Of a stretch of 64,000 nucleotides of DNA, positions 49,271-64,000 are shown piece by piece. A program made the position numbers and the translations under genes. Source of the stretch: Erwinia endophytica (GTDB lineage Bacteria; Pseudomonadota; Gammaproteobacteria; Enterobacterales; Enterobacteriaceae); contig NZ_RQVV01000015.1 of the NCBI RefSeq assembly GCF_009295515.1, positions 1 to 64,000 on the forward strand, written 5' to 3'. Below the pieces are notes generated by a model. The model worked only from the letters and a program-made list of their open reading frames with translations. It was not told the DNA's origin and did not search any database. Position 1 is the first letter of the stretch; each line of letters begins with the position of its first letter.

Positions 49271-50020
49271 CTAACCGTTTTTCAGCGGCGAGCAGTATTT
49301 CTCGAGTGGCAGACTGGTTAACCGCAGCGAGCGTGGCCCCATGTTATGCGCGTGGGTCTGAATATTTAGCAGTTGCTTCCAGCTTTGCCCCCCATCAAAC
49401 TCCCACAGGTACAGCGGTTCGCTCATTGTTGATAGGGCGCAGGACCAGATTATTAATGCTTCAACGTCGGAAATTGCCTGAATATCCGGAAATTTCACTG
49501 AACGTAGTCGTCCTGACGCCGGATGCAGTTGTAGAGCGGGGCTGTCCGGCGTTTGACCTGTCAGTTTCAGTACGCTTTGGCGCAGTGTCCAAAGTTGAGT
49601 TGTCGCTTCATCAGGATCGGCTTGCGCTCTTATCCATGTTTTTTCACCGGAAGAGATCCCTCTGGAGTATCGCTCCAGCGTCTGATGGTTGTGCGAGCGA
49701 GCGATCTCCATTCCCAGCCCGACATGGCCCCCTTCTTCGGCCAGTAAAACGCCAACGATATTACCAGCATAGGCGATGCTGAAATCTGGCAGAGTGTCAT
49801 CGACAAAATGTGGTCGCCCAGTGTCAGAGGTGACCAGTGCAGGAAGTTGCGGAATACCATAAACACTCCATATCAGTTCAGCCAGCAGCATTCGTGAAGC
49901 AAGGTAACGGAGGCGGCGCCGTTCCGGGAGGTAGCGAGCATGATCTTCTGTTTGAAAGGGGAGTCGGTGTGTCGGGACGCTGGCATCCGTCAGGGACCAG
50001 CGAGCAAAATGATTTGCCAT
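49271..50020 (-). CDS. yieE: YieE-type 4'-phosphopantetheinyl transferase-like protein
   Basis: Putative phosphopantetheinyl transferase, 249 aa, matching E. coli YieE from its start (MANHFARW) through LASRMLLAELIWSVYGI and TLRQSVLKLTGQ. PPTases load carrier proteins with the 4'-phosphopantetheine arm. The family's metal-binding motif G-x-D-x-E reads VGLGMEIARS here, so the Asp expected at residue 103 is Gly (codon GGA) while the Glu remains. This would weaken Mg2+ binding, so the protein may be inactive or altered. The ribosome-binding site GGAGCGACAG is intact. Confidence 0.82.
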   Translation of the reverse strand: MANHFARWSLTDASVPTHRLPFQTEDHARYLPERRRLRYLASRMLLAELIWSVYGIPQLPALVTSDTGRPHFVDDTLPDFSIAYAGNIVGVLLAEEGGHVGLGMEIARSHNHQTLERYSRGISSGEKTWIRAQADPDEATTQLWTLRQSVLKLTGQTPDSPALQLHPASGRLRSVKFPDIQAISDVEALIIWSCALSTMSEPLYLWEFDGGQSWKQLLNIQTHAHNMGPRSLRLTSLPLEKYCSPLKNG

Positions 50021-52975: not shown

Positions 52976-55096
52976 TTATTTTAGGTCGCTTATTTCCTGA
53001 ATGTTACCTTGATTCAGAACAATAATACGATCAGCGCTGCGTATAGTTTCAGGACGATGGGCTACAATGATTCGGGTAATATTCATCGTCTTGATTGCTG
53101 AATTTATCAGACTTTCATTATTGACGTCCAGATGACTGGTTGCTTCATCCAACACTAAAATTTCGGGATCCCGATACAGGGCCCTTGCCAGAAGAATACG
53201 CTGAATCTGCCCACCCGATAAAAATGAGCCCATATCGCCAACCAGACTCTGATAATTCATGGGCATTTGCATAATATCATTATGAATCTGTGCCATTTGT
53301 GCGACACGATGGATTTTTTCATGATCAGGTTCTTCAGCGAAGAAGCTGATGTTGTCAGCAATTGAGCCAGAAAAAAGAATGTCATCCTGCATCACGCAGC
53401 CAATTCTTTCCCGATGTTGCTGCAAGCCCGCCTGAGCAATATTGTGTTTTCCAACGCAAATGGTGCCTTCCTGAGGATGTAGTAACCCCAGAATAACTTT
53501 TGCCAGCGTGGTTTTACCCTGACCGGATGGGCCAATGATGGCAACAGATTCCCCTGATTTAATCGTTAAATTAATCCCATCAATGACCCAGGGTTCGGTT
53601 TCCGCATAACGAAAGCGCAGTCCTTCAATGACAATATCACTATCGTGGCCATCATTTTTTCTGGGTACAACAATGCTGTCAGTTTCGGGTTCTGTTTCGG
53701 ATAGGGCAATGTCAGCCAGACGTTCACCATGAAGTCGCAGCATACGGAAATCAATCACCGAATTGATCAGTCCCGAAGCCCGGCTGATAAATTGATCGGA
53801 GAAACTGATAAATGCGGTTAGCATACCGGCCGAAAAATTGCCTTCCATGACTTGATTCGCAGCCAGCCAGACCAGCGCCACGCGCCCGACTGAAGAGATC
53901 AGCCCTTGCAGCGTACCGTATCCAATATTCAATTTCTGAATATTGACCCCTTTATTCGTGGTATCCACCAGATAATTCATATAAGTGGAGAGCCGGGTAT
54001 TTTGCTTGTTATTGGTTTTAACCGCCTGAATGCCGCGTAATGTTTCCAGTAAAGAGGACTGGGTTTTTGCCGAGCTGATTATCTGATCCTCCCGGGCCTG
54101 GCGCAGGGAGCGATAAGAGGAGAAACGGATAAGCGCATAAGCCACGAGCAGACCAATGACCAGCCAGGCGAGTTTCGCATTATAGATAAATAACATCACC
54201 AGGGTCACTAATGACATGATGCCATCCAGCACGGTGCTGATGAAGCGCGAAGTCAGGGTGTCCTGAATTGACCCCACGGAACCGAATCGGGACAAAATAT
54301 CGCCCACATGGCGTGATTCAAAGTAAGACAATGGCAACTTCAGCAGATGGCGACAAATATTAGTGGTCCATTGCACGCTTAGCAGGCTGGAAAACCAGGT
54401 CGTCACCCAGGACCGCAGCGCAGAAATCAGGTTCTGGAAGATGGATATCATGATAAAGCCCACGCCCAGCAACGTCAGCAGCGAGTGGTCAGCGGATACC
54501 AGCACCAGGTCCATAACCCATTGCATAAAGAAGGGGCCCAGAATGCCAAAAAATTCCAGTGAAACGGAGAGGATCAGTATCTGAGCAAACGCCGATTTAA
54601 TGCCCGTTACGCTACCGATCAGGCGTAGCATCGAGATACTTTCTTTCTCTTTTTTGGCAACGAAGGTTGAGGTGGGCACCAGTTCAAGCGCAACGCCGGT
54701 GAAACTTTGCGAAATTTCTTTTAGCGGAACAACACGGATCCCTTTTGCCGGGTCATGAATGGTTATCTTATTCTGATCGGCTTTTTTCAACACCACGAAG
54801 TGATTCATATCCCAGTGTAAAATACAGGGACACTTCAGTTTCGATAATTCTTCAACTTCCAGGCGTAATGCGCGAGCGGTTAAATCCAGACGCTGTGCCA
54901 CGGTAATCACGTCGGCAAGCGTCGCGCCTTTTAAAGAGGTTGAGAAGCGGCGTCGTAACGACACTATATCAATTTCATGGCCGTAGTAGTTGGCAATCAT
55001 CCCTACACAGGCAAGTCCGCATTCTGCTGCCTGGGATTGCCGGACAACCGGCAGACGCCGTTTCCAGCTAAAGTTTAAATTATCTAATAAAGACAC
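52976..55096 (-). CDS. Peptidase-containing ABC transporter (C39, CvaB/LcnC type)
   Basis: Bacteriocin-type exporter, 706 aa, GTG start (ribosome-binding site AAGG 8 bp upstream). Residues 1-130 are a C39 cysteine protease with Q20, catalytic C26 (QSQAAECGLACVG), H99 (MNHFVVL) and D115 (IHDPAKG), all intact, so it should cleave double-glycine leaders. Residues about 160-430 are membrane helices. The C-terminal ATPase has GPSGQGKTT, the signature FLSGGQIQRILLARAL and Walker B ILVLDEATSHLD. HlyB-like exporters and LapB-type adhesin exporters lack the catalytic Cys, so this is a true processing transporter. Adjacent HlyD and TolC-like genes complete the export complex. Confidence 0.93.
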   Translation of the reverse strand: MSLLDNLNFSWKRRLPVVRQSQAAECGLACVGMIANYYGHEIDIVSLRRRFSTSLKGATLADVITVAQRLDLTARALRLEVEELSKLKCPCILHWDMNHFVVLKKADQNKITIHDPAKGIRVVPLKEISQSFTGVALELVPTSTFVAKKEKESISMLRLIGSVTGIKSAFAQILILSVSLEFFGILGPFFMQWVMDLVLVSADHSLLTLLGVGFIMISIFQNLISALRSWVTTWFSSLLSVQWTTNICRHLLKLPLSYFESRHVGDILSRFGSVGSIQDTLTSRFISTVLDGIMSLVTLVMLFIYNAKLAWLVIGLLVAYALIRFSSYRSLRQAREDQIISSAKTQSSLLETLRGIQAVKTNNKQNTRLSTYMNYLVDTTNKGVNIQKLNIGYGTLQGLISSVGRVALVWLAANQVMEGNFSAGMLTAFISFSDQFISRASGLINSVIDFRMLRLHGERLADIALSETEPETDSIVVPRKNDGHDSDIVIEGLRFRYAETEPWVIDGINLTIKSGESVAIIGPSGQGKTTLAKVILGLLHPQEGTICVGKHNIAQAGLQQHRERIGCVMQDDILFSGSIADNISFFAEEPDHEKIHRVAQMAQIHNDIMQMPMNYQSLVGDMGSFLSGGQIQRILLARALYRDPEILVLDEATSHLDVNNESLINSAIKTMNITRIIVAHRPETIRSADRIIVLNQGNIQEISDLK

Positions 55097-55119
55097 TTAA
55101 TAAACCTTTTTTTATATGT

Positions 55120-56379
55120 TTAAGCAGATAAGTTATGACCTAATGCATAGAGAGGTTCTAATATCCACTCATACAAATGTCGTTTATCGACTAAAAAGTC
55201 AGCATCTAATGCCATTCCGGGCTTAAGATATTCATCGCGTGAGTAAACCTGAATATTTTGCTTATCCAGTTTCACTATGACCCGATATTGCTGTTCATGG
55301 ACGTTGTTGTTGCCCGTCAGGTTAGCGATCTCTTGCGGCGAAAGCGCGCTTCTGGAGACTTCAATAACCCGACCATACTGCTGGCCAAATTTTTGATAAG
55401 GGAATGCCTTGTAGCGCAAGACTACCCGCTGGTTAGGTTCAATAAAGCCGATTGCCTGGGTGTTGACCATCATACGTGCTACCAACTCACTGCCTGCTGG
55501 CAAGATGGATATTGCGGTATGACCGGCATTCAGGATCTGGCCTGTTTTCACCATAATAGTCCCGACGGTCCCATCCTGTGGCGCGCGCAACTCTATTGCC
55601 CGGCGGGATTCATTTTCGGCAAGAGACTGGCTGTTATCAGATAACTGTCTTTGTATATCATTGATTTTTTTATCTGTATTCAGCGGTTGTTCGCGAAGCT
55701 TTTGTTCCGTCTGCACAATTTGTTGCTGAATATCCAGCAGTTGCCGTTTGTATTCTTGCCATCTGGCTTGGGTTTCTAACAAGTTTGACTCTTGATCCTC
55801 AACTTGTTTGGTAGAGGCATAACCGTCTTTTAACATTTTCTGCAATTTATCCAGTTGCGTACGAGCTAATGCGACCTGCTTCTCGCGGTGCTTAACCTGC
55901 ATCGCCAACTGATCTTTTTGCAGCTTCATGCTGAGAATGCTGTTTGTTAACCCGGCAGTTTCCAACTCGCTCATCTCTTTTGCTGTCTGTAAATCAGCGA
56001 GCAGACGAGTACGTTGTTCCTTCAGCCGGTCTGAAATGACCTGCCGGGTTGGACCTAATGAGGTTGAAACTTCTGACGATAGCACCATCAATTTATCGCC
56101 CTGTTTTACCGTCTGACCTTCTTTAACGAAAATATGGGTTGCTGTACCGGATACTGGTGCGGAGATAGTCAGCATGCCTTCTTTAGGAATGAGCTCACCT
56201 GTTGATGTCTCATATTTGGTATAGCTGCCAAATATGAAAAACAGCAGGGCTGATAAGGTAATGAAGATGACCAGAGAAATGACCAGCCATCGCCATGGTG
56301 GGCAGTAAAGTGTGACTGTCCCCAAAGTGCCTTTATTATTGGCATCCAGTGCTTCCTGGCGGAATAGAGAGTTATCCAT
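55120..56379 (-). CDS. HlyD/CvaA-type membrane fusion protein
   Basis: Periplasmic adaptor of the type 1 export complex, 419 aa. One N-terminal membrane helix lies at about residues 30-53. Then come a lipoyl-like segment (ISAPVSGTATHIFVKEGQTV), a long coiled coil of residues about 115-245, and the second half-lipoyl LRAPQDGTVGTIMVKTGQI, followed by a beta-barrel. This matches CvaA/HlyD-like proteins serving peptide exporters. It begins 23 bp upstream of the exporter start and reads in the same direction. Confidence 0.88.
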   Translation of the reverse strand: MDNSLFRQEALDANNKGTLGTVTLYCPPWRWLVISLVIFITLSALLFFIFGSYTKYETSTGELIPKEGMLTISAPVSGTATHIFVKEGQTVKQGDKLMVLSSEVSTSLGPTRQVISDRLKEQRTRLLADLQTAKEMSELETAGLTNSILSMKLQKDQLAMQVKHREKQVALARTQLDKLQKMLKDGYASTKQVEDQESNLLETQARWQEYKRQLLDIQQQIVQTEQKLREQPLNTDKKINDIQRQLSDNSQSLAENESRRAIELRAPQDGTVGTIMVKTGQILNAGHTAISILPAGSELVARMMVNTQAIGFIEPNQRVVLRYKAFPYQKFGQQYGRVIEVSRSALSPQEIANLTGNNNVHEQQYRVIVKLDKQNIQVYSRDEYLKPGMALDADFLVDKRHLYEWILEPLYALGHNLSA

Positions 56380-56408
56380 TTAATTAACTCGAATTAATAA
56401 TTGAAGGT

Positions 56409-57731
56409 TTAACGACATTGGAAAATATCCAGTGAATCAATGTCAAGACTGCCGGTGTACAGCGAAAGTTGCAGTATGGCGGCCAGAAACTTGTATTTTG
56501 CTTCGGAATAATCCCGTAAGGATTCATAATATTTTTGTTGAGCATCCAACTCATCAGTGGTGGTCCTCAATCCCATATTTCTTTCGTACTGGATTGATTT
56601 CACTTTCTGTTGTGCCGAGTCGACGGCATGCTTCTGGGCCTGCATCAGCGCGACGCCATTTTTGATGCTCAACCAGGCTGAACGCGTATCCTGAATGGCT
56701 TTGCGTTGTGCTTCCGTAATATTGTCTTTCGCCGCTTCTTTGCGATAAGCCGCTTCAAACGATTGTGAGAGCTGGCCGCCGCCGGAAAACAGTGGAACAG
56801 AGACAGAGACGCCATATTGCAGGTTGGAACTTTTAGAACGCGTGCCGAAAATCGCGTCATACAGCACATTGTTATCAGCATCATTGCGGCTCCAGTTTTT
56901 ACCGTAACTGGCATACACTGACACCGTTGGCAGATGAGCGCCATCTGCTGCCAGCACATCCGCGCTGGCCTGTTCTGTCTGTAGTTGCGCTATTTTTACA
57001 GCGATATTATTGCGTTGTGCAGCAGACACCGCCTGATTGAGTGTGAGGGCAGGTTCGGGAGCAATACACTGAAAATTAATGGGTTCTACGCCTTCAGGAA
57101 TGGTACCTGTCAATTTCCTGAAGGCCTCGCCTGCCAGTAACAGATCATTTCTCGCCTGGATCTGCTTCGCCTGCGCCAGGTCATAATTTGCACGGGCTTC
57201 ATCGACATCCGTTCGGGTATTCTGGCCGTTTCGCAGACCCGATTGCAGACTGGTATATTGCGATTTGAACGTTTGGGTTGCCGATTGTGCCGCCTGTAGC
57301 ACTTCTTGCTGATACAGGACAGAAAAATACGCTTCTGAGACATCAGTAATCAGTTTTTGCTGTGACTGAAAAAATTGTGCTTCCGAGGTGTTGGCGATCG
57401 CATCGCCTTTTTTCCAGGCAGCAATTTTCGCCATATCAAAAACAGGCTGTTGCATCTCAACATTGTATGAGTGCCGGGTCACGCCTGTTTGGTATTTTTG
57501 GCTCGGTTGTTCCTGACGGTTCCAGCCACCCTGAAGATTAACGGAAGGCAACATGCCTGACACTCCCTGCCAGTAGCGTTGTTTATCCGCTTTCGTGGTC
57601 GCCCGATCTGATTGTAATGCGGAATCATAGGTAAAGGCGGCGACGACGGCTTCTTTAAGTGTTGTTGCTGGGGCAGTCATTGAAACAACCAAAGTGCTTA
57701 ATAGAATAAATTTATTAGAAAAGTTTTTCAT
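56409..57731 (-). CDS. TolC-family outer-membrane efflux protein
   Basis: Outer-membrane channel of 440 aa, with a signal peptide (MKNFSNKFILLSTLVVSMTAPA) and two TolC-type repeats of beta strands and long helices; the second opens TLNQAVSAAQRNNIAVKIAQ. It has its own gene here rather than relying on chromosomal tolC, which suggests a dedicated exporter. It lies 29 bp upstream of the hlyD-like gene and 87 bp downstream of the regulator. Confidence 0.85.
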   Translation of the reverse strand: MKNFSNKFILLSTLVVSMTAPATTLKEAVVAAFTYDSALQSDRATTKADKQRYWQGVSGMLPSVNLQGGWNRQEQPSQKYQTGVTRHSYNVEMQQPVFDMAKIAAWKKGDAIANTSEAQFFQSQQKLITDVSEAYFSVLYQQEVLQAAQSATQTFKSQYTSLQSGLRNGQNTRTDVDEARANYDLAQAKQIQARNDLLLAGEAFRKLTGTIPEGVEPINFQCIAPEPALTLNQAVSAAQRNNIAVKIAQLQTEQASADVLAADGAHLPTVSVYASYGKNWSRNDADNNVLYDAIFGTRSKSSNLQYGVSVSVPLFSGGGQLSQSFEAAYRKEAAKDNITEAQRKAIQDTRSAWLSIKNGVALMQAQKHAVDSAQQKVKSIQYERNMGLRTTTDELDAQQKYYESLRDYSEAKYKFLAAILQLSLYTGSLDIDSLDIFQCR

Positions 57732-57818: not shown

Positions 57819-58481
57819 CTAAATGATTTTCTCTGAATAGGCGTATTTAATTAAATCTGTTGTATTGGTCAGAAGTAACTTACGCATTGCATTATATTTT
57901 TGTGTAGAAATAGTACTGACGCTCCTTTTGCGTGATTTGGCAATTTCAGTGAGACGGTAACCCAGTGCAATCTGGCGAATCACTTCCATTTCAGAAGAAG
58001 TCAATTCGTCTTTTCTTTTTGAATGTAAAGAATTTGATAATATCCGCTTGATACTGCTAGAAAGATAAGGTTCTTTCCGGTCTGAATTAGCGAATGATAA
58101 TGCATTAATCAGTTCTTCTCCCTCGTCATTTTTGCTGACAAGACCAGAAACTTTGTATTTAAGAATGCTGGTCAGAATAGCCATATTACGTTGTGAGGTA
58201 AGGATAATAATTTTTAATTCGGGAATTTTCTTAGTGAGTTCTTTTATTTTTTCGATACCATCAAGAGAACCTTCATCGTAACTTAATGAAAATTCAGTAA
58301 TAAGGACGTCAACCGGATGGCTTTTTATCTTGTGGAGTAATAATGCTCCTTCGAGAGGATAATTATGTATTTCTACCTCTGGGCAATAAGACGATAAAAA
58401 ATACCTGACAGAGCTCAAGATAAATGGGCTTTCATCAGATAAGGCTATTTTGTATTTAGATCCGATCGCATAGCTAGTCAT
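57819..58481 (-). CDS. RcsB-like LuxR-type regulator with Glu at the phospho-site
   Basis: Two-domain regulator, 220 aa: receiver-like domain (1-125) and LuxR helix-turn-helix (about 150-215, ELTSSEMEVIRQIALGYRLTEIAKSRKRSVSTISTQK). It lines up with RcsB/FimZ-type proteins. In RcsB the phosphorylated Asp is in VLITDLSMPG; here the line is VLITEFSLSYD, so residue 63 is Glu, a change that often mimics phosphorylation. The acid pair is also reduced (SDESP). The Lys in SGLVSKNDEG is kept. It is therefore likely a phosphorylation-independent activator. Position between the fimbrial and export genes suggests it controls both. Confidence 0.82.
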   Translation of the reverse strand: MTSYAIGSKYKIALSDESPFILSSVRYFLSSYCPEVEIHNYPLEGALLLHKIKSHPVDVLITEFSLSYDEGSLDGIEKIKELTKKIPELKIIILTSQRNMAILTSILKYKVSGLVSKNDEGEELINALSFANSDRKEPYLSSSIKRILSNSLHSKRKDELTSSEMEVIRQIALGYRLTEIAKSRKRSVSTISTQKYNAMRKLLLTNTTDLIKYAYSEKII

Positions 58482-58607: not shown

Positions 58608-59642
58608 TTATTGGTAACTAATGGTATACGTCGCTGAGCTGTTGGCGACACCTGCGGTAATCGTATTCCCAGTCTGATAATAGCGGGCATAAAAAGGCAC
58701 GGTTACTGCCGCCGAAGACAACGGGAATGACGCCACAGTGAAAGGTGTGCTTAACGAAACAGGATTGTTGTTACCATCAAGCAGTTGTACCCCGACGTTG
58801 GTTGCCGAATTAGTACTCTCAGTTAGCGCCAGTACGCCATTATCACTAAAACCTGATACCGGCGTACCGTCAAATTGCAACATGACATCAAACGAACCGG
58901 ACAGCAATGCTTCGCAATCCAGTGCAATATTAAATGCGGTGGCAGGGCTGGTTGAGCCAATACCTGAGCCCAGTCCGCTGGTTGCATTGATCGAGTAACT
59001 TCCCAAATCCACTGTTTGATTGGCATCACCACTGACGGAACAGGTTTTACTCACTACGGAAATACCTGATTTAAGATTGGTTATATAAAATGCCAGATCT
59101 CCATCTTCAACGTAAGAACCCACCTTAAATATGATAACGTTATTCCTTATACCAGTGGTAGCACTTATTGATGACGATGTTTTTACAAGCCTAATGGGAA
59201 CGGTCAACTCAACGTCGGTATATTCCCCGAGACTAGAGGTGTAAGCAAACATCTCGATTATCTTACCTGTAGCAATACTGGCCACATCGGTGCCTATATC
59301 ACCATTATAGCCAGTGTAAAGCGTCAAGCCGTAACCCAAATCATCAGTAATGGCGACACGCTTGAAATAGACCTCAGCCTGCTGACCATCTAAATACTGT
59401 ACCAGGTTATTCAATGCGCACTGAAAATTTACGGTGGTCGTTCCCTCGTAAACTACAGTACCAATAGGGATGTCAGCAGATAAGGTTAACCCCAGGGCAC
59501 TGAAATCCACGGCATTCACGGTGGTCGAATTCCTACACTTCAACGTGACATCGTCAGATGCCTGTGACCCTGTTATTGTTAATAAAAGGAAGAGCGTACT
59601 AATAAAAACGATCAGTCCTTTGCGTAGTGGGGTAAAAAACAT
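58608..59642 (-). CDS. Fimbrial tip adhesin, FimH-like two-domain
   Basis: Secreted pilus tip protein, 344 aa, with a signal peptide (KGLIVFISTLFLLLTITGSQA). The N-terminal part has LKCRNSTT and VNFQCALNN, a disulfide pair typical of a receptor-binding domain. The C-terminal pilin domain has SKTCSVSGDA, ALDCEALLS and the terminal beta-strand ATYTISYQ that the usher-chaperone recognises. It follows the usher by 37 bp, as FimH-type adhesins do. The ligand is unknown. Confidence 0.82.
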   Translation of the reverse strand: MFFTPLRKGLIVFISTLFLLLTITGSQASDDVTLKCRNSTTVNAVDFSALGLTLSADIPIGTVVYEGTTTVNFQCALNNLVQYLDGQQAEVYFKRVAITDDLGYGLTLYTGYNGDIGTDVASIATGKIIEMFAYTSSLGEYTDVELTVPIRLVKTSSSISATTGIRNNVIIFKVGSYVEDGDLAFYITNLKSGISVVSKTCSVSGDANQTVDLGSYSINATSGLGSGIGSTSPATAFNIALDCEALLSGSFDVMLQFDGTPVSGFSDNGVLALTESTNSATNVGVQLLDGNNNPVSLSTPFTVASFPLSSAAVTVPFYARYYQTGNTITAGVANSSATYTISYQ

Positions 59643-62316: not shown

Positions 62317-63057
62317 TTATTGGCCAGACAGGGTGCTATCCATACTCCTGCTGCTGCCATAGTCGTCAATATATTGATAGTGAATGTTGTTTTTTGTTGT
62401 CAGGTTATTTATTCCAGATACAGTAAATGTTTGTTCTCCCCCAGGGGCGACCATATTTCCTCTGACGCTGGTATGTTTTTTCCCTGAGTTGTCTTCTAAA
62501 TCAACACTGGCGACATTCACATGGTATGGCGAGTTATTATGTGCCGTTAGTGTGGATGTATTGCCATTACGCCGCCAGACCAGCGCTTTGGCAGCATTAT
62601 CCGCGCCTTCCGCAGTTAATCCATCAGGGCGATAAAATATTTTAATGCGACTTCTTATCGCCATTTGTAATTTATTTTTATTGGCTAGTGCCTTATTTTG
62701 TGGCGGCACATCAAGAACGTTTAGCCAAAATACAGATTCTTTGTCAGCGGGTAAATTCTCACCCGTATAAATCAGACGCAGTGTTTGCCCTTTATGTGCC
62801 TCCATCCTGAAAACAGGAGGCGTCAGAATAAACGGCACCTGTATTTTATCCAGTGGCTGATTAGGATCCCCGCTGTCAATCCAGGTTTGTACCAGCGCAG
62901 GTTTATTACTTTTATTATCAAGACGAACCGTCACTTCTTTTTCTTTCGCGGGATAAATAACGCGTGTACCGATGATAGTCACGCTTGCCGACGCTGGAAT
63001 AGCAACGCACATCGCCATTAATATACTGAATAATCTGGAGATGAATTTTTTATTCAT
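62317..63057 (-). CDS. Periplasmic pilus chaperone (FimC/PapD type)
   Basis: Periplasmic chaperone of two immunoglobulin-like domains, about 246 aa. It has the signal peptide MNKKFISRLFSILMAMCVAIPASA, then VTIIGTRVIYPAKEKEVTVRL and FWLNVLDVPP, the donor-strand region. Start choice: ATG at 63057, since the frame from 63069 adds only MFVT before MNKK and neither has a strong ribosome-binding site. It captures the pilin and adhesin subunits and hands them to the usher. Confidence 0.9.
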   Translation of the reverse strand: MNKKFISRLFSILMAMCVAIPASASVTIIGTRVIYPAKEKEVTVRLDNKSNKPALVQTWIDSGDPNQPLDKIQVPFILTPPVFRMEAHKGQTLRLIYTGENLPADKESVFWLNVLDVPPQNKALANKNKLQMAIRSRIKIFYRPDGLTAEGADNAAKALVWRRNGNTSTLTAHNNSPYHVNVASVDLEDNSGKKHTSVRGNMVAPGGEQTFTVSGINNLTTKNNIHYQYIDDYGSSRSMDSTLSGQ

Positions 63058-63086
63058 AGTTACAAACACGACCAGTGTCCATGATT

Positions 63087-63120
63087 AAAAAAAGACGAGG
63101 GATCACTGCTGATCCCCCGC
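63087..63120 (-). terminator. Terminator-like hairpin after the major pilin
   Basis: On the minus strand a GC-rich stem with GGGATCA pairing to TGATCCC and loop GCAG, extended on both sides, is followed by seven Ts. It sits between the pilin and chaperone genes and should let most transcripts end after the abundant pilin, as in many fimbrial operons. Confidence 0.85.
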
Positions 63121-63129
63121 CTTGTTTTA

Positions 63130-63669
63130 TTAGATGTACTCGATTGAATAGGTTACTGAAGTAGAAACAGTACCTGCACCCGCAGCGCCAGTCGCGTAAT
63201 ATTCAGCAGAGTAAGCCAGGGTGGCAGAACCACTACTCAGTGATTCTGCTACTGGTGATGTAGACTGGTCAGAGCTACCGATATTAATAACGGTGCCACT
63301 GCTGTCCTTCAACTGTACATCAACGTTAGTTGCAGTACCGTTGTTGGTCAGTCTGCCAGTAGTCGTATCAACGTTTGCACCACTTTCGAAGTAGGCATAA
63401 GCAGATGCGGTGAGGTTAGTACAAGAAGACAGATCAATAGTAAAGCTGGTAGCACCCGCAGTGGTACCAGTAGAATCCAGTGAGCCTGTGGAGAGCGTAG
63501 GCAGAGTTACGGTAGCATCGGCGCTACCGGTGCTGTTTACACCAACGTCACAAGTTGCGCTTGTCAGTTCACCATTGAAGGTGATTGTGCCATCAGACGC
63601 TACTGCGTTTGCAGATACAGTTGCCAGAATACCCGCAGCAACCAGAGACGAAATTAATGCGCTTTTCAT
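63130..63669 (-). CDS. Major fimbrial subunit (FimA type)
   Basis: Main pilin, 179 aa from the ATG at 63669 (ribosome-binding site AAGGATGGTATT); the longer open frame up to 63723 is not used. The signal peptide MKSALISSLVAAGILATVSANAVA is followed by GTITFNGELTSATCDVG, the beginning of the FimA fold, with partner cysteine in LSSCTNL. The C-terminal strand VSTSVTYSIEYI is the chaperone/usher recognition strand. It follows the small peptide gene by about 110 bp. Confidence 0.93.
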   Translation of the reverse strand: MKSALISSLVAAGILATVSANAVASDGTITFNGELTSATCDVGVNSTGSADATVTLPTLSTGSLDSTGTTAGATSFTIDLSSCTNLTASAYAYFESGANVDTTTGRLTNNGTATNVDVQLKDSSGTVINIGSSDQSTSPVAESLSSGSATLAYSAEYYATGAAGAGTVSTSVTYSIEYI

Positions 63670-63732
63670 AATACCATCCTTTGATATTGAACAATTAATT
63701 TGTAGCGCTGTCAGGGGCGCCAATCCTTTATC

Positions 63733-63779: not shown

Positions 63780-64000
63780 TTAAGCGAAAAGAGTACTCAG
63801 TGCAACAGTTGCTACAGCTAACACCGAAACAAGGCCTATTCCGAAAACTTCACCGCTAACAGGCGTTGCTTCCGGAATATCATCCGGACGCACCCAGTCA
63901 GCGTTACTTGATGAGCTGCTGCTTGTTAAGTCTTTAAAAAAATCCATAATCAACGTAGTTAGTGAACCACCACTAACAGATTTAATTTCTGATGTTTTTA
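63780..64000 (-). CDS. Double-glycine-leader small peptide, microcin-like (partial, 5' end beyond window)
   Basis: The frame enters from the window edge and ends TAA at 63780-63782; it is too short for a usual ORF cut-off. The visible leader end reads KTSEIKSVSGG, with E at -8, I at -7, V at -4 and G-G at -2/-1, the pattern recognised by C39 peptidases (ELxxVxGG). The predicted mature part has 61 residues: SLTTLIMDFFKDL, a run of six serines, an acidic middle (ADWVRPDDIPEATP) and a C-terminal hydrophobic helix (VFGIGLVSVLAVATV and onward to LFA) ending at the stop. The same-strand C39 exporter about 9 kb downstream is the natural processor. It resembles class II microcins in plan, but I recognise no family and no immunity gene in view. 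Confidence 0.75.
   Translation of the reverse strand, partial: KTSEIKSVSGGSLTTLIMDFFKDLTSSSSSSNADWVRPDDIPEATPVSGEVFGIGLVSVLAVATVALSTLFA

What the first reader, a model, noticed from the sequence alone, without database searches (positions are those of the whole stretch)
63780..64000. Unannotated double-glycine-leader peptide, truncated by the window edge
The leader end KTSEIKSVSGG fits the C39-peptidase recognition pattern at -8, -7, -4, -2 and -1. The mature peptide (61 residues) has a six-serine linker and a hydrophobic C-terminal helix running to the stop, a layout suggesting a membrane-active or membrane-anchored secreted peptide. A minimum-length filter would miss it. It lies upstream of, and on the same strand as, a fimbrial operon and a matching exporter. 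Seen: the frame, leader motif and stop. Inferred: secretion and toxicity or surface role.
Basis: partly seen in the sequence, partly recalled or inferred. Interest (0 to 1): 0.9.

Follow-up and report, generated by a model that had tools for sequence, protein, structure and literature searches.

The report
Paired secreted peptides tied to fimbriae
The peptide is real and complete, and together with a larger partner peptide, its own exporter, a hair-like attachment organelle and often a helper protein it forms a gene package that seems to move between bacteria as a unit, probably to act on neighbouring cells on contact; that action is untested.

Summary
The frame is complete 10 bases past the window: 76 aa (15-aa leader, 61-aa mature part) with a ribosome-binding site. 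Both precede a chaperone-usher fimbrial operon; a regulator, TolC-HlyD-C39 exporter and an Eag/SciW-type (DcrB) protein follow. The package recurs in Erwinia, Pantoea (LONG on 40 plasmid records), Mixta, Enterobacter, Intestinirhabdus, Burkholderia and Andreprevotia. In 20 of 21 modules with both peptides they directly precede fimA. Exporter and usher distances correlate after controlling for gyrB (partial r 0.96) and follow gyrB weakly. No immunity gene was recognised. Closest known: Cdz of Caulobacter, two glycine-zipper proteins, type I secretion, contact killing; its authors already noted adhesion genes near Cdz-like loci. Most likely the large peptide is a Cdz-like membrane-active effector, the small one its partner, the fimbria gives contact, and the Eag-like protein shields hydrophobic helices before export. 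Package and leader-exporter match are well supported; cleavage, export and killing are inferred. New variant of a known kind.

The parts
63780..64000 (-). SHORT: 76-aa double-glycine peptide of the finding; ORF continues to its ATG at contig position 64010 (10 bases past the window); leader MRELKTSEIKSVSGG, 61-aa mature part, hydrophobic C-terminal helix. Its partner LONG lies wholly beyond the window edge at contig 64053-64370, minus strand: 105 aa, leader MRELTFVEIEHVSGA, glycine zipper GxxxGxxxGxxxGxxxG at residues 60-76
   Evidence: SHORT; relatives. LONG; upstream GAGGAGG
63130..63669 (-). fimA-type major pilin (mechanical ORF starts at 63723; ATG with signal-peptide-like start at 63669)
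   Evidence: Pfam PF16970 and PF00419 (on the longer ORF)
63092..63123 (-). terminator-like hairpin right after fimA (14-pair stem, T run)
   Evidence: a simple scan finds hairpins after fimA in 16 of 25 non-redundant modules, this one included, and none in the other 9
62317..63069 (-). periplasmic pilus chaperone
   Evidence: PF00345, PF02753
59680..62271 (-). outer-membrane usher
   Evidence: PF00577 E 5.8e-157
58608..59642 (-). two-domain tip-adhesin-like subunit; C-terminal pilin domain, N-terminal domain (about 30-190) without a family
   Evidence: PF00419 on 194-344 only; PDB sequence matches lie in the pilin part, except one weak match to R.MvaI across both (E 0.0039); model pLDDT 78.6
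57819..58481 (-). response-regulator/LuxR-type regulator
   Evidence: PF00072, PF00196; RcsB model 7.4e-27, below its cut-off
56409..57731 (-). TolC-like outer-membrane channel
   Evidence: PF02321; TIGR01844 above cut-off
55120..56379 (-). HlyD-type membrane fusion protein
   Evidence: PF13437
52976..55096 (-). ABC exporter with N-terminal C39 peptidase
   Evidence: PF03412 E 1.9e-37, PF00664, PF00005
52365..52805 (-). DcrB/DUF1795 protein of the Eag/SciW type, candidate chaperone for the hydrophobic peptides
   Evidence: PF08786 E 1.4e-27; SciW E 3.5e-15

Best explanation
The peptide is the small half (SHORT) of a two-peptide cargo, with the glycine-zipper peptide LONG as the large half, in a mobile gene package that couples peptide secretion to a chaperone-usher fimbria. 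Mechanism, step by step. (1) Inferred from arrangement: LONG, SHORT and the major pilin are made together, with a hairpin after fimA damping the assembly genes. (2) Inferred: the Eag/SciW-like protein holds the hydrophobic helices of LONG (perhaps also SHORT) in the cytoplasm. (3) Supported by leader and neighbouring exporter, not shown: the C39 domain cuts after GG/GA and the ABC-HlyD-TolC complex exports both peptides to the cell surface. (4) Inferred from Cdz: LONG assembles through its glycine zipper at the producer surface and inserts into the membrane of a touching cell, SHORT acting as its partner through its single C-terminal helix. (5) Inferred: the fimbria with its variable tip subunit supplies the contact and so the choice of target. 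Confidence: package as a functional unit about 0.9; export by this C39 system about 0.9; contact-dependent antagonism of other bacteria about 0.5.
For: Leader and neighbouring C39 exporter; LONG and SHORT profiles align only over residues 1-20, so they share an export signal but are otherwise different. LONG-SHORT-fimA adjacent (counting module genes) in 20 of 21 modules that have SHORT, of 25 non-redundant modules, although the exporter block lies either before or after the peptide-fimbria block. Also in Burkholderia and Andreprevotia (L068, L077, L078). Partial Mantel given gyrB: HlyD-usher 0.96 (11 modules), SHORT-usher 0.82 (12), LONG-usher 0.61 (13), p 0.0002-0.0006; correlations of module genes with gyrB are 0.12-0.41 over the comparisons made. 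An usher lies near 25 of 31 exporters of this clade, against 0 of 26 other C39 exporters (limits told in Tried and rejected). In G161 the peptides stay with the fimbria while the genome's only C39 match is far away. LONG carries GxxxG runs of at least four steps in all 25 modules, which were chosen by a LONG profile. Eag-type protein in 15 of 25 modules, full-length match to SciW. Cdz: two glycine-zipper proteins, type I secretion, contact killing; adhesion genes near many Cdz-like loci (PMC5380434, sections 13 and 18 read).
Against: No activity data. No small membrane immunity protein recognised in the modules read, whereas Cdz has an essential one. SHORT has no glycine zipper (one GxxxG). 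LONG is not the fastest-changing part (mean pairwise identity 0.51; SHORT 0.35, regulator 0.33, tip subunit and DcrB 0.31), unlike a toxin in an arms race. The Eag-type protein was not found in 10 of 25 modules (two of these stretches lack the exporter or end at a contig edge) and SHORT not in 4 of 25. Of the polar Eag contact positions only Q59 is invariant in 10 module proteins; position 37 is Ser in 2, 41 is Ser in 5, 106 is Gln in 4. Nine of 35 clade exporters have no usher in the stretch held.
Confidence: 0.52

Rival explanations
1. The peptides are structural, not toxic: surface-retained hydrophobic peptides that coat, anchor or bundle the fimbria or promote cell-cell adhesion and biofilm, secreted by the type I system because the chaperone-usher route cannot handle them.
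For: Tightest linkage is to fimA, not to the exporter; no immunity gene recognised; LONG is well conserved; glycine zippers also drive aggregation (PMC5380434 passages).
Against: Leader-exporter-peptide layout is that of bacteriocin and microcin systems; two distinct peptides, sometimes further GG peptides (L044, L047, L078), look more like a weapon set than a coat.
Confidence: 0.27
2. Ordinary diffusible class II microcins whose genes happen to share an island with a fimbrial operon.
For: GG leaders and a C39 exporter; the module region has lower G+C (44.8%) than window 1-52000 (51.3%), as for an island; many class II microcin candidates are reported from Erwinia and Pantoea (PMC13174018 passages).
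Against: Peptides and fimbria stay together in distant genera with a rearranged exporter block; usher adjacency 25 of 31 against about 3% that I estimate from 7 usher matches in the own genome; no match to the microcin V family above cut-off.
Confidence: 0.1
3. The cargo acts on eukaryotic host cells (plant or insect), the fimbria giving host attachment.
For: Many of the listed carriers come from plants or insects by sample source or name; no immunity gene recognised, as expected if bacteria are not the target.
Against: Also on plasmids from human blood and wound samples; GG-leader peptides of this size are not a known host-effector class (recalled).
Confidence: 0.08
4. Secreted signalling peptides read by the linked response-regulator-like protein.
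For: A regulator gene is in 22 of 25 modules.
Against: No sensor kinase among the module genes; the receiver match is weak in the one relative scanned (L008, E 0.021), though clear in the window (1.5e-9); mature peptides of 61 and about 90 aa are large and hydrophobic.
Confidence: 0.03

Closest known systems
Cdz system of Caulobacter crescentus (CdzABCDI) and Cdz-like loci (Garcia-Bayona et al. 2017, PMC5380434)
   Same: Two small proteins with GG-type leaders, type I exporter, glycine zipper (LONG); adhesion genes reported near many Cdz-like loci
   Different: Here a chaperone-usher fimbria is part of the unit, the exporter brings its own TolC-like channel, an Eag-type protein is often present, the second peptide has no zipper, and no CdzI-like immunity protein was recognised
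Class II microcins (microcin V type)
   Same: GG leader, C39 ABC exporter plus HlyD protein
   Different: No family match above cut-off; two co-conserved peptides; fimbria; no adjacent immunity gene recognised
Eag chaperones SciW and EagT6 of the type VI secretion system
   Same: SciW: full-length sequence match; shared contact-region residues incl. an invariant Gln aligning with EagT6 Q58
   Different: Encoded beside a type I exporter and fimbria, with no type VI gene among the module's genes
Chaperone-usher fimbriae (type 1-like, four genes)
   Same: Pilin, chaperone, usher, two-domain tip subunit
   Different: Preceded by two GG peptides; tip domain of unknown family

Membership tests
Cdz-like bacteriocins (criteria of PMC5380434, section 13) | 60-151 residues | tested here: met
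   SHORT 76 aa, LONG 105 aa
Cdz-like bacteriocins (criteria of PMC5380434, section 13) | leader ending G[G/A/S] | tested here: met
   SHORT GG, LONG GA
Cdz-like bacteriocins (criteria of PMC5380434, section 13) | SHORT: glycine zipper not interrupted by proline or charged residues | tested here: not met
   one GxxxG only, GEVFG, with a charged residue inside; SHORT itself is therefore not filed as Cdz-like
Cdz-like bacteriocins (criteria of PMC5380434, section 13) | LONG: glycine zipper not interrupted by proline or charged residues | tested here: met
   G60-G64-G68 uninterrupted; the extension to G76 contains D71 in the window and several Pantoea sequences, Q or other residues elsewhere
[quoted passage not shown]
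   LONG ends in a polar tail of about 28 aa; SHORT of the window ends hydrophobic
Cdz-like bacteriocins (criteria of PMC5380434, section 13) | type I secretion genes within about 10 kb | tested here: met
   exporter block 52976-57731, about 6 to 11 kb from SHORT
Cdz (as characterised) | small transmembrane immunity protein | tested here: inconclusive
   none recognised by eye and a crude hydropathy count in L008-L010 and L041-L051; overlapping or distant genes not excluded
Cdz (as characterised) | contact-dependent killing by surface-held protein | not testable with these tools
   needs competition assays
Class II microcins | match to a known microcin family above cut-off | tested here: not met
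   SHORT none; LONG to MccV PF17508 E 0.31-0.5, 11.4-12.1 bits against a cut-off of 27
C39/PCAT-exported GG peptides | leader pattern plus linked C39 exporter | tested here: met
   cleavage not testable here
Eag/DUF1795 chaperones | sequence family | tested here: met
   PF08786 above cut-off; SciW E 3.5e-15
Eag/DUF1795 chaperones | linked to a type VI effector with prePAAR and transmembrane domain | tested here: not met
   the genes between 52365 and 64370 are the eleven listed; none is a type VI gene; genes farther off were not scanned for prePAAR
Chaperone-usher fimbriae | pilin, chaperone and usher families | tested here: met
   all above Pfam cut-offs

The most novel reading that the evidence does not exclude
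A fimbria-guided toxin system: a chaperone-usher pilus with a variable tip chooses and holds the neighbour, a conserved two-peptide glycine-zipper cargo held at the surface permeabilises it, and a chaperone of the type VI Eag family has been recruited to load a type I secretion system. This would be a chaperone-usher fimbria with a built-in toxin cargo, and an Eag chaperone working outside type VI secretion.
Probability: 0.35. Interest if true: 0.87.

Novelty: new variant of a known kind. Interest (0 to 1): 0.7.

Why it matters
Chaperone-usher fimbriae are treated as adhesion organelles and GG-peptide exporters as stand-alone weapon systems. A package that keeps both together in distant genera, on chromosomes and plasmids, makes the suggestion in the Cdz paper that linked adhesion genes help contact delivery directly testable, in a biocontrol strain. 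The Eag-type gene offers a clear biochemical test of whether that chaperone fold serves more than type VI secretion. A variable tip subunit with a better conserved LONG predicts where target choice may lie.

Tried and rejected
Rejected: SHORT as a member of a known bacteriocin or microcin family (Pfam and NCBIfam, no hit); a longer protein with an internal GG (start codon found); chance leader; accidental fimbria neighbour. LONG has only matches below cut-off: DUF5862 at E 0.00073 for the L009 copy (19.8 bits, cut-off 33.3) and 0.09 for the window copy, TraT at 0.026, MccV at 0.5. A nucleotide search of E. coli genomes gave no match and a scan of named genomes with SHORT alone none. PADLOC gave nothing for the two peptides, the DcrB protein or the adhesin. 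A class-wide sample found LONG (E <= 1e-6) in 1 of 369 genomes, the window's own; an order sample found SHORT in 2 of 394, own included, with a four-sequence profile, so the package is uncommon. Fold comparison of the two models could not be run. A tree of DcrB proteins did not settle whether module copies are one clade apart from type VI copies. A promoter-like site lies just before SHORT, but promoter-like sites in that stretch are at chance level (3 found, 3.3 expected).

Weak points of the counts: the 25 non-redundant modules were picked for having LONG (E < 1e-20), an ABC hit and an usher hit, so they speak for gene order and co-variation, not for how often the genes co-occur; the profiles were built from the window, L008, L009 and L010, which match by construction. 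In one search the exporter distances include an unrelated ABC gene of L044, and LONG rows of L068 and L077 were read from ORFs that begin too far upstream; one search leaves out L044 and L047 where the ABC gene is used, and the identities use 19 of the 25 modules (10 for DcrB) and leave out L068 and L077 for LONG. The hairpin scan is a simple one, and two of its 16 sites lie more than 50 bases past fimA.

Papers: PMC5380434 passages and sections 13, 18; PMC8386478 outline and part 1 of 9; PMC7773334, PMC13174018 and PMC10233263 passages only; PMC13101503 term search without hits; all others search listings only. In the listings I saw none that describes this package; these are the top rows from an open PMC library, and I read no supplements, so the package may be among the Cdz-like loci of the 2017 supplementary list or the microcin lists of PMC13174018.

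Full report
The ORF. On the minus strand the frame from 63998 to the stop at 63780 is open. The window is the start of contig C7 (96,025 bases) of a 4.23 Mb genome, and the rest of the contig was taken. The ORF starts with ATG at 64010, with AGGG upstream: 76 aa, leader MRELKTSEIKSVSGG, mature part 61 aa. A strict leader pattern finds exactly two ORFs of 40-130 aa in contig 1-80000 and none in 30 shuffles.

The partner. The second ORF, contig 64053-64370, lies just upstream with GAGGAGG before its ATG: 105 aa, MRELTFVEIEHVSGAG..., rich in glycine with GxxxGxxxGxxxGxxxG at residues 60-76. I call it LONG and the finding SHORT. Profile comparison aligns the two only over residues 1-20, so they share the leader and are otherwise different. 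Upstream of LONG comes mnmE (by reading the ORF).

The neighbourhood. Downstream on the same strand are a major pilin, chaperone, usher and two-domain tip subunit, then a LuxR-type regulator, a TolC-like channel, an HlyD protein, a C39 ABC exporter and a DcrB-family protein. The module region has 44.8% G+C against 51.3% for window 1-52000.

Relatives. SHORT has matches in 4 of 98 genomes searched, the own one and three others of the same genus. Contig length links one of these to Erwinia oleae (87,754 bases), so the genus is Erwinia; the species of the window was not determined. All three carry the complete set of eleven genes in one order. A profile of LONG over 392 genomes of the family matched 55 at E <= 0.01, of which 11 (own included) at E <= 1.7e-27; 10 of these 11 have the fimbrial operon beside LONG, the miss being G118. 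With the exporter as query, 80 named loci were kept of 528 matches; among them the module with LONG and fimbria is in Erwinia, Pantoea, Mixta, Intestinirhabdus, an Enterobacter sp. and a Pluralibacter bin, and in two Burkholderia spp. and Andreprevotia chitinilytica, the last two genera being betaproteobacteria (recalled). LONG is on 40 of 72,556 plasmid records, all Pantoea, and the three records opened show the same gene order as the window, the peptides annotated as hypothetical proteins.

Linkage. From the loci held, 25 non-redundant modules with strong LONG, an ABC hit and an usher were picked. SHORT was found in 21, and LONG-SHORT-fimA are neighbours among module genes in 20 of these 21; the exporter block stands either before or after the peptide-fimbria block. 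G161 has its only C39 match at C1:1158125, far from its peptides and fimbria near C1:4603000. Ushers lie near 25 of 31 exporters of the same clade with loci of 20 kb or more (26 of all 35) and near 0 of 26 other C39 exporters with such loci (0 of all 45) (cut chosen afterwards, taxa differ). The own genome has seven usher matches, so chance would give about 3% (my estimate). In 11-13 of 13 genomes per comparison, distances of HlyD and usher correlate at 0.95, and at 0.96 after removing gyrB distance; SHORT-usher 0.82, LONG-usher 0.61, LONG-SHORT 0.64 after removal; correlations with gyrB itself are 0.12-0.41 (SHORT-HlyD has 10 modules). I read this as a package that moves as a unit. Some exporters of the clade stand without recognised peptide or fimbria in the stretch held (L063, L079, L080), and L076 is fragmented.

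Transcription layout. A strong hairpin with a T run follows fimA in the window, and a simple scan finds hairpins there in 16 of 25 modules. No such site was found between SHORT and fimA on that strand. I infer that LONG, SHORT and pilin are made together in amount; no RNA data were available.

The DcrB protein. It matches the type VI Eag chaperone SciW over nearly its whole length (E 3.5e-15, residues 6-142 of 146) and, as a profile of ten module proteins, SciW (7e-17) and EagT6 (1.5e-8, first 95 positions). By my reading of the alignments, window residues I25, V27, S37, S41, Q59 and Q106 fall on EagT6 I22, I24, S37, S41, Q58 and Q102 (the last through SciW Q106), which the structure paper names as contacts to transmembrane helices, including GxxxG helices (PMC7773334 passages). 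Across ten module proteins Q59 is invariant, but position 37 (Ser in 2 of 10), 41 (Ser in 5 of 10) and 106 (Gln in 4 of 10) are not. The protein is present in 15 of 25 modules. The own genome has three further family members, one of them (L180) between a VgrG-like and a large Rhs-like gene (gene names by eye). That the module copy serves LONG is my inference.

Function. Cdz in Caulobacter consists of two small glycine-zipper proteins exported by a type I system that kill on contact, with an immunity protein (PMC5380434). LONG meets most of that paper's criteria; SHORT does not, lacking a zipper. No small membrane immunity ORF shared between the modules read was recognised. The tip subunit varies most among the surface parts (mean identity 0.31; N-terminal domain 0.30; SHORT 0.35) while LONG is at 0.51, which fits a constant effector with changing targeting but also fits a structural role. 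I therefore hold contact-dependent antagonism as most likely at about one half, a structural role at about one quarter.

Novelty. The parts are known kinds and the Cdz authors already noted adhesion genes near Cdz-like loci. What I did not find in print (listings from an open library) is the fixed package of two GG peptides, chaperone-usher fimbria, own exporter and Eag-type protein, its spread as a unit, or the specific peptides.

Noticed in passing
L176 3204-6994 (own genome C30): A second HlyD plus C39 ABC pair with its own LONG-like 118-aa GG peptide and no fimbrial gene found in the 14 kb read.
   Followed up: partly
L051 10184-10537 (own genome C24): A LONG-like 117-aa peptide without exporter or fimbria found in the 20 kb read; by eye like the peptides of L081 and L083.
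   Followed up: partly
L044 10632-10838, L047 9757-9984, L078 12728-12931: Extra small ORFs with GG leaders between LONG and SHORT: some modules carry three or more GG peptides.
   Followed up: no
L052, L081, L083, L084, L087: Related exporters sit beside a different fimbrial operon with two chaperone matches and a DcrB-type gene; L054 looks alike but no DcrB was found in its stretch. A sister arrangement.
   Followed up: partly
L053, L055, L056: More distant arrangement: fimbrial operon, LONG-like peptide, then HlyD and C39 ABC downstream (L056 shows only a 133-aa ABC piece there).
   Followed up: no
L042 4457-6454: The regulator and the TolC-like gene each appear as two ORFs, as if decaying; left as they are.
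   Followed up: no
window 49271-50020: An EntD-like protein (by eye) also lies near the modules of L044, L045, L046 and L049: a possible insertion hot spot.
   Followed up: no
L063, L079, L080: Exporter blocks of the same clade without recognised cargo or fimbria in the stretch held.
   Followed up: partly
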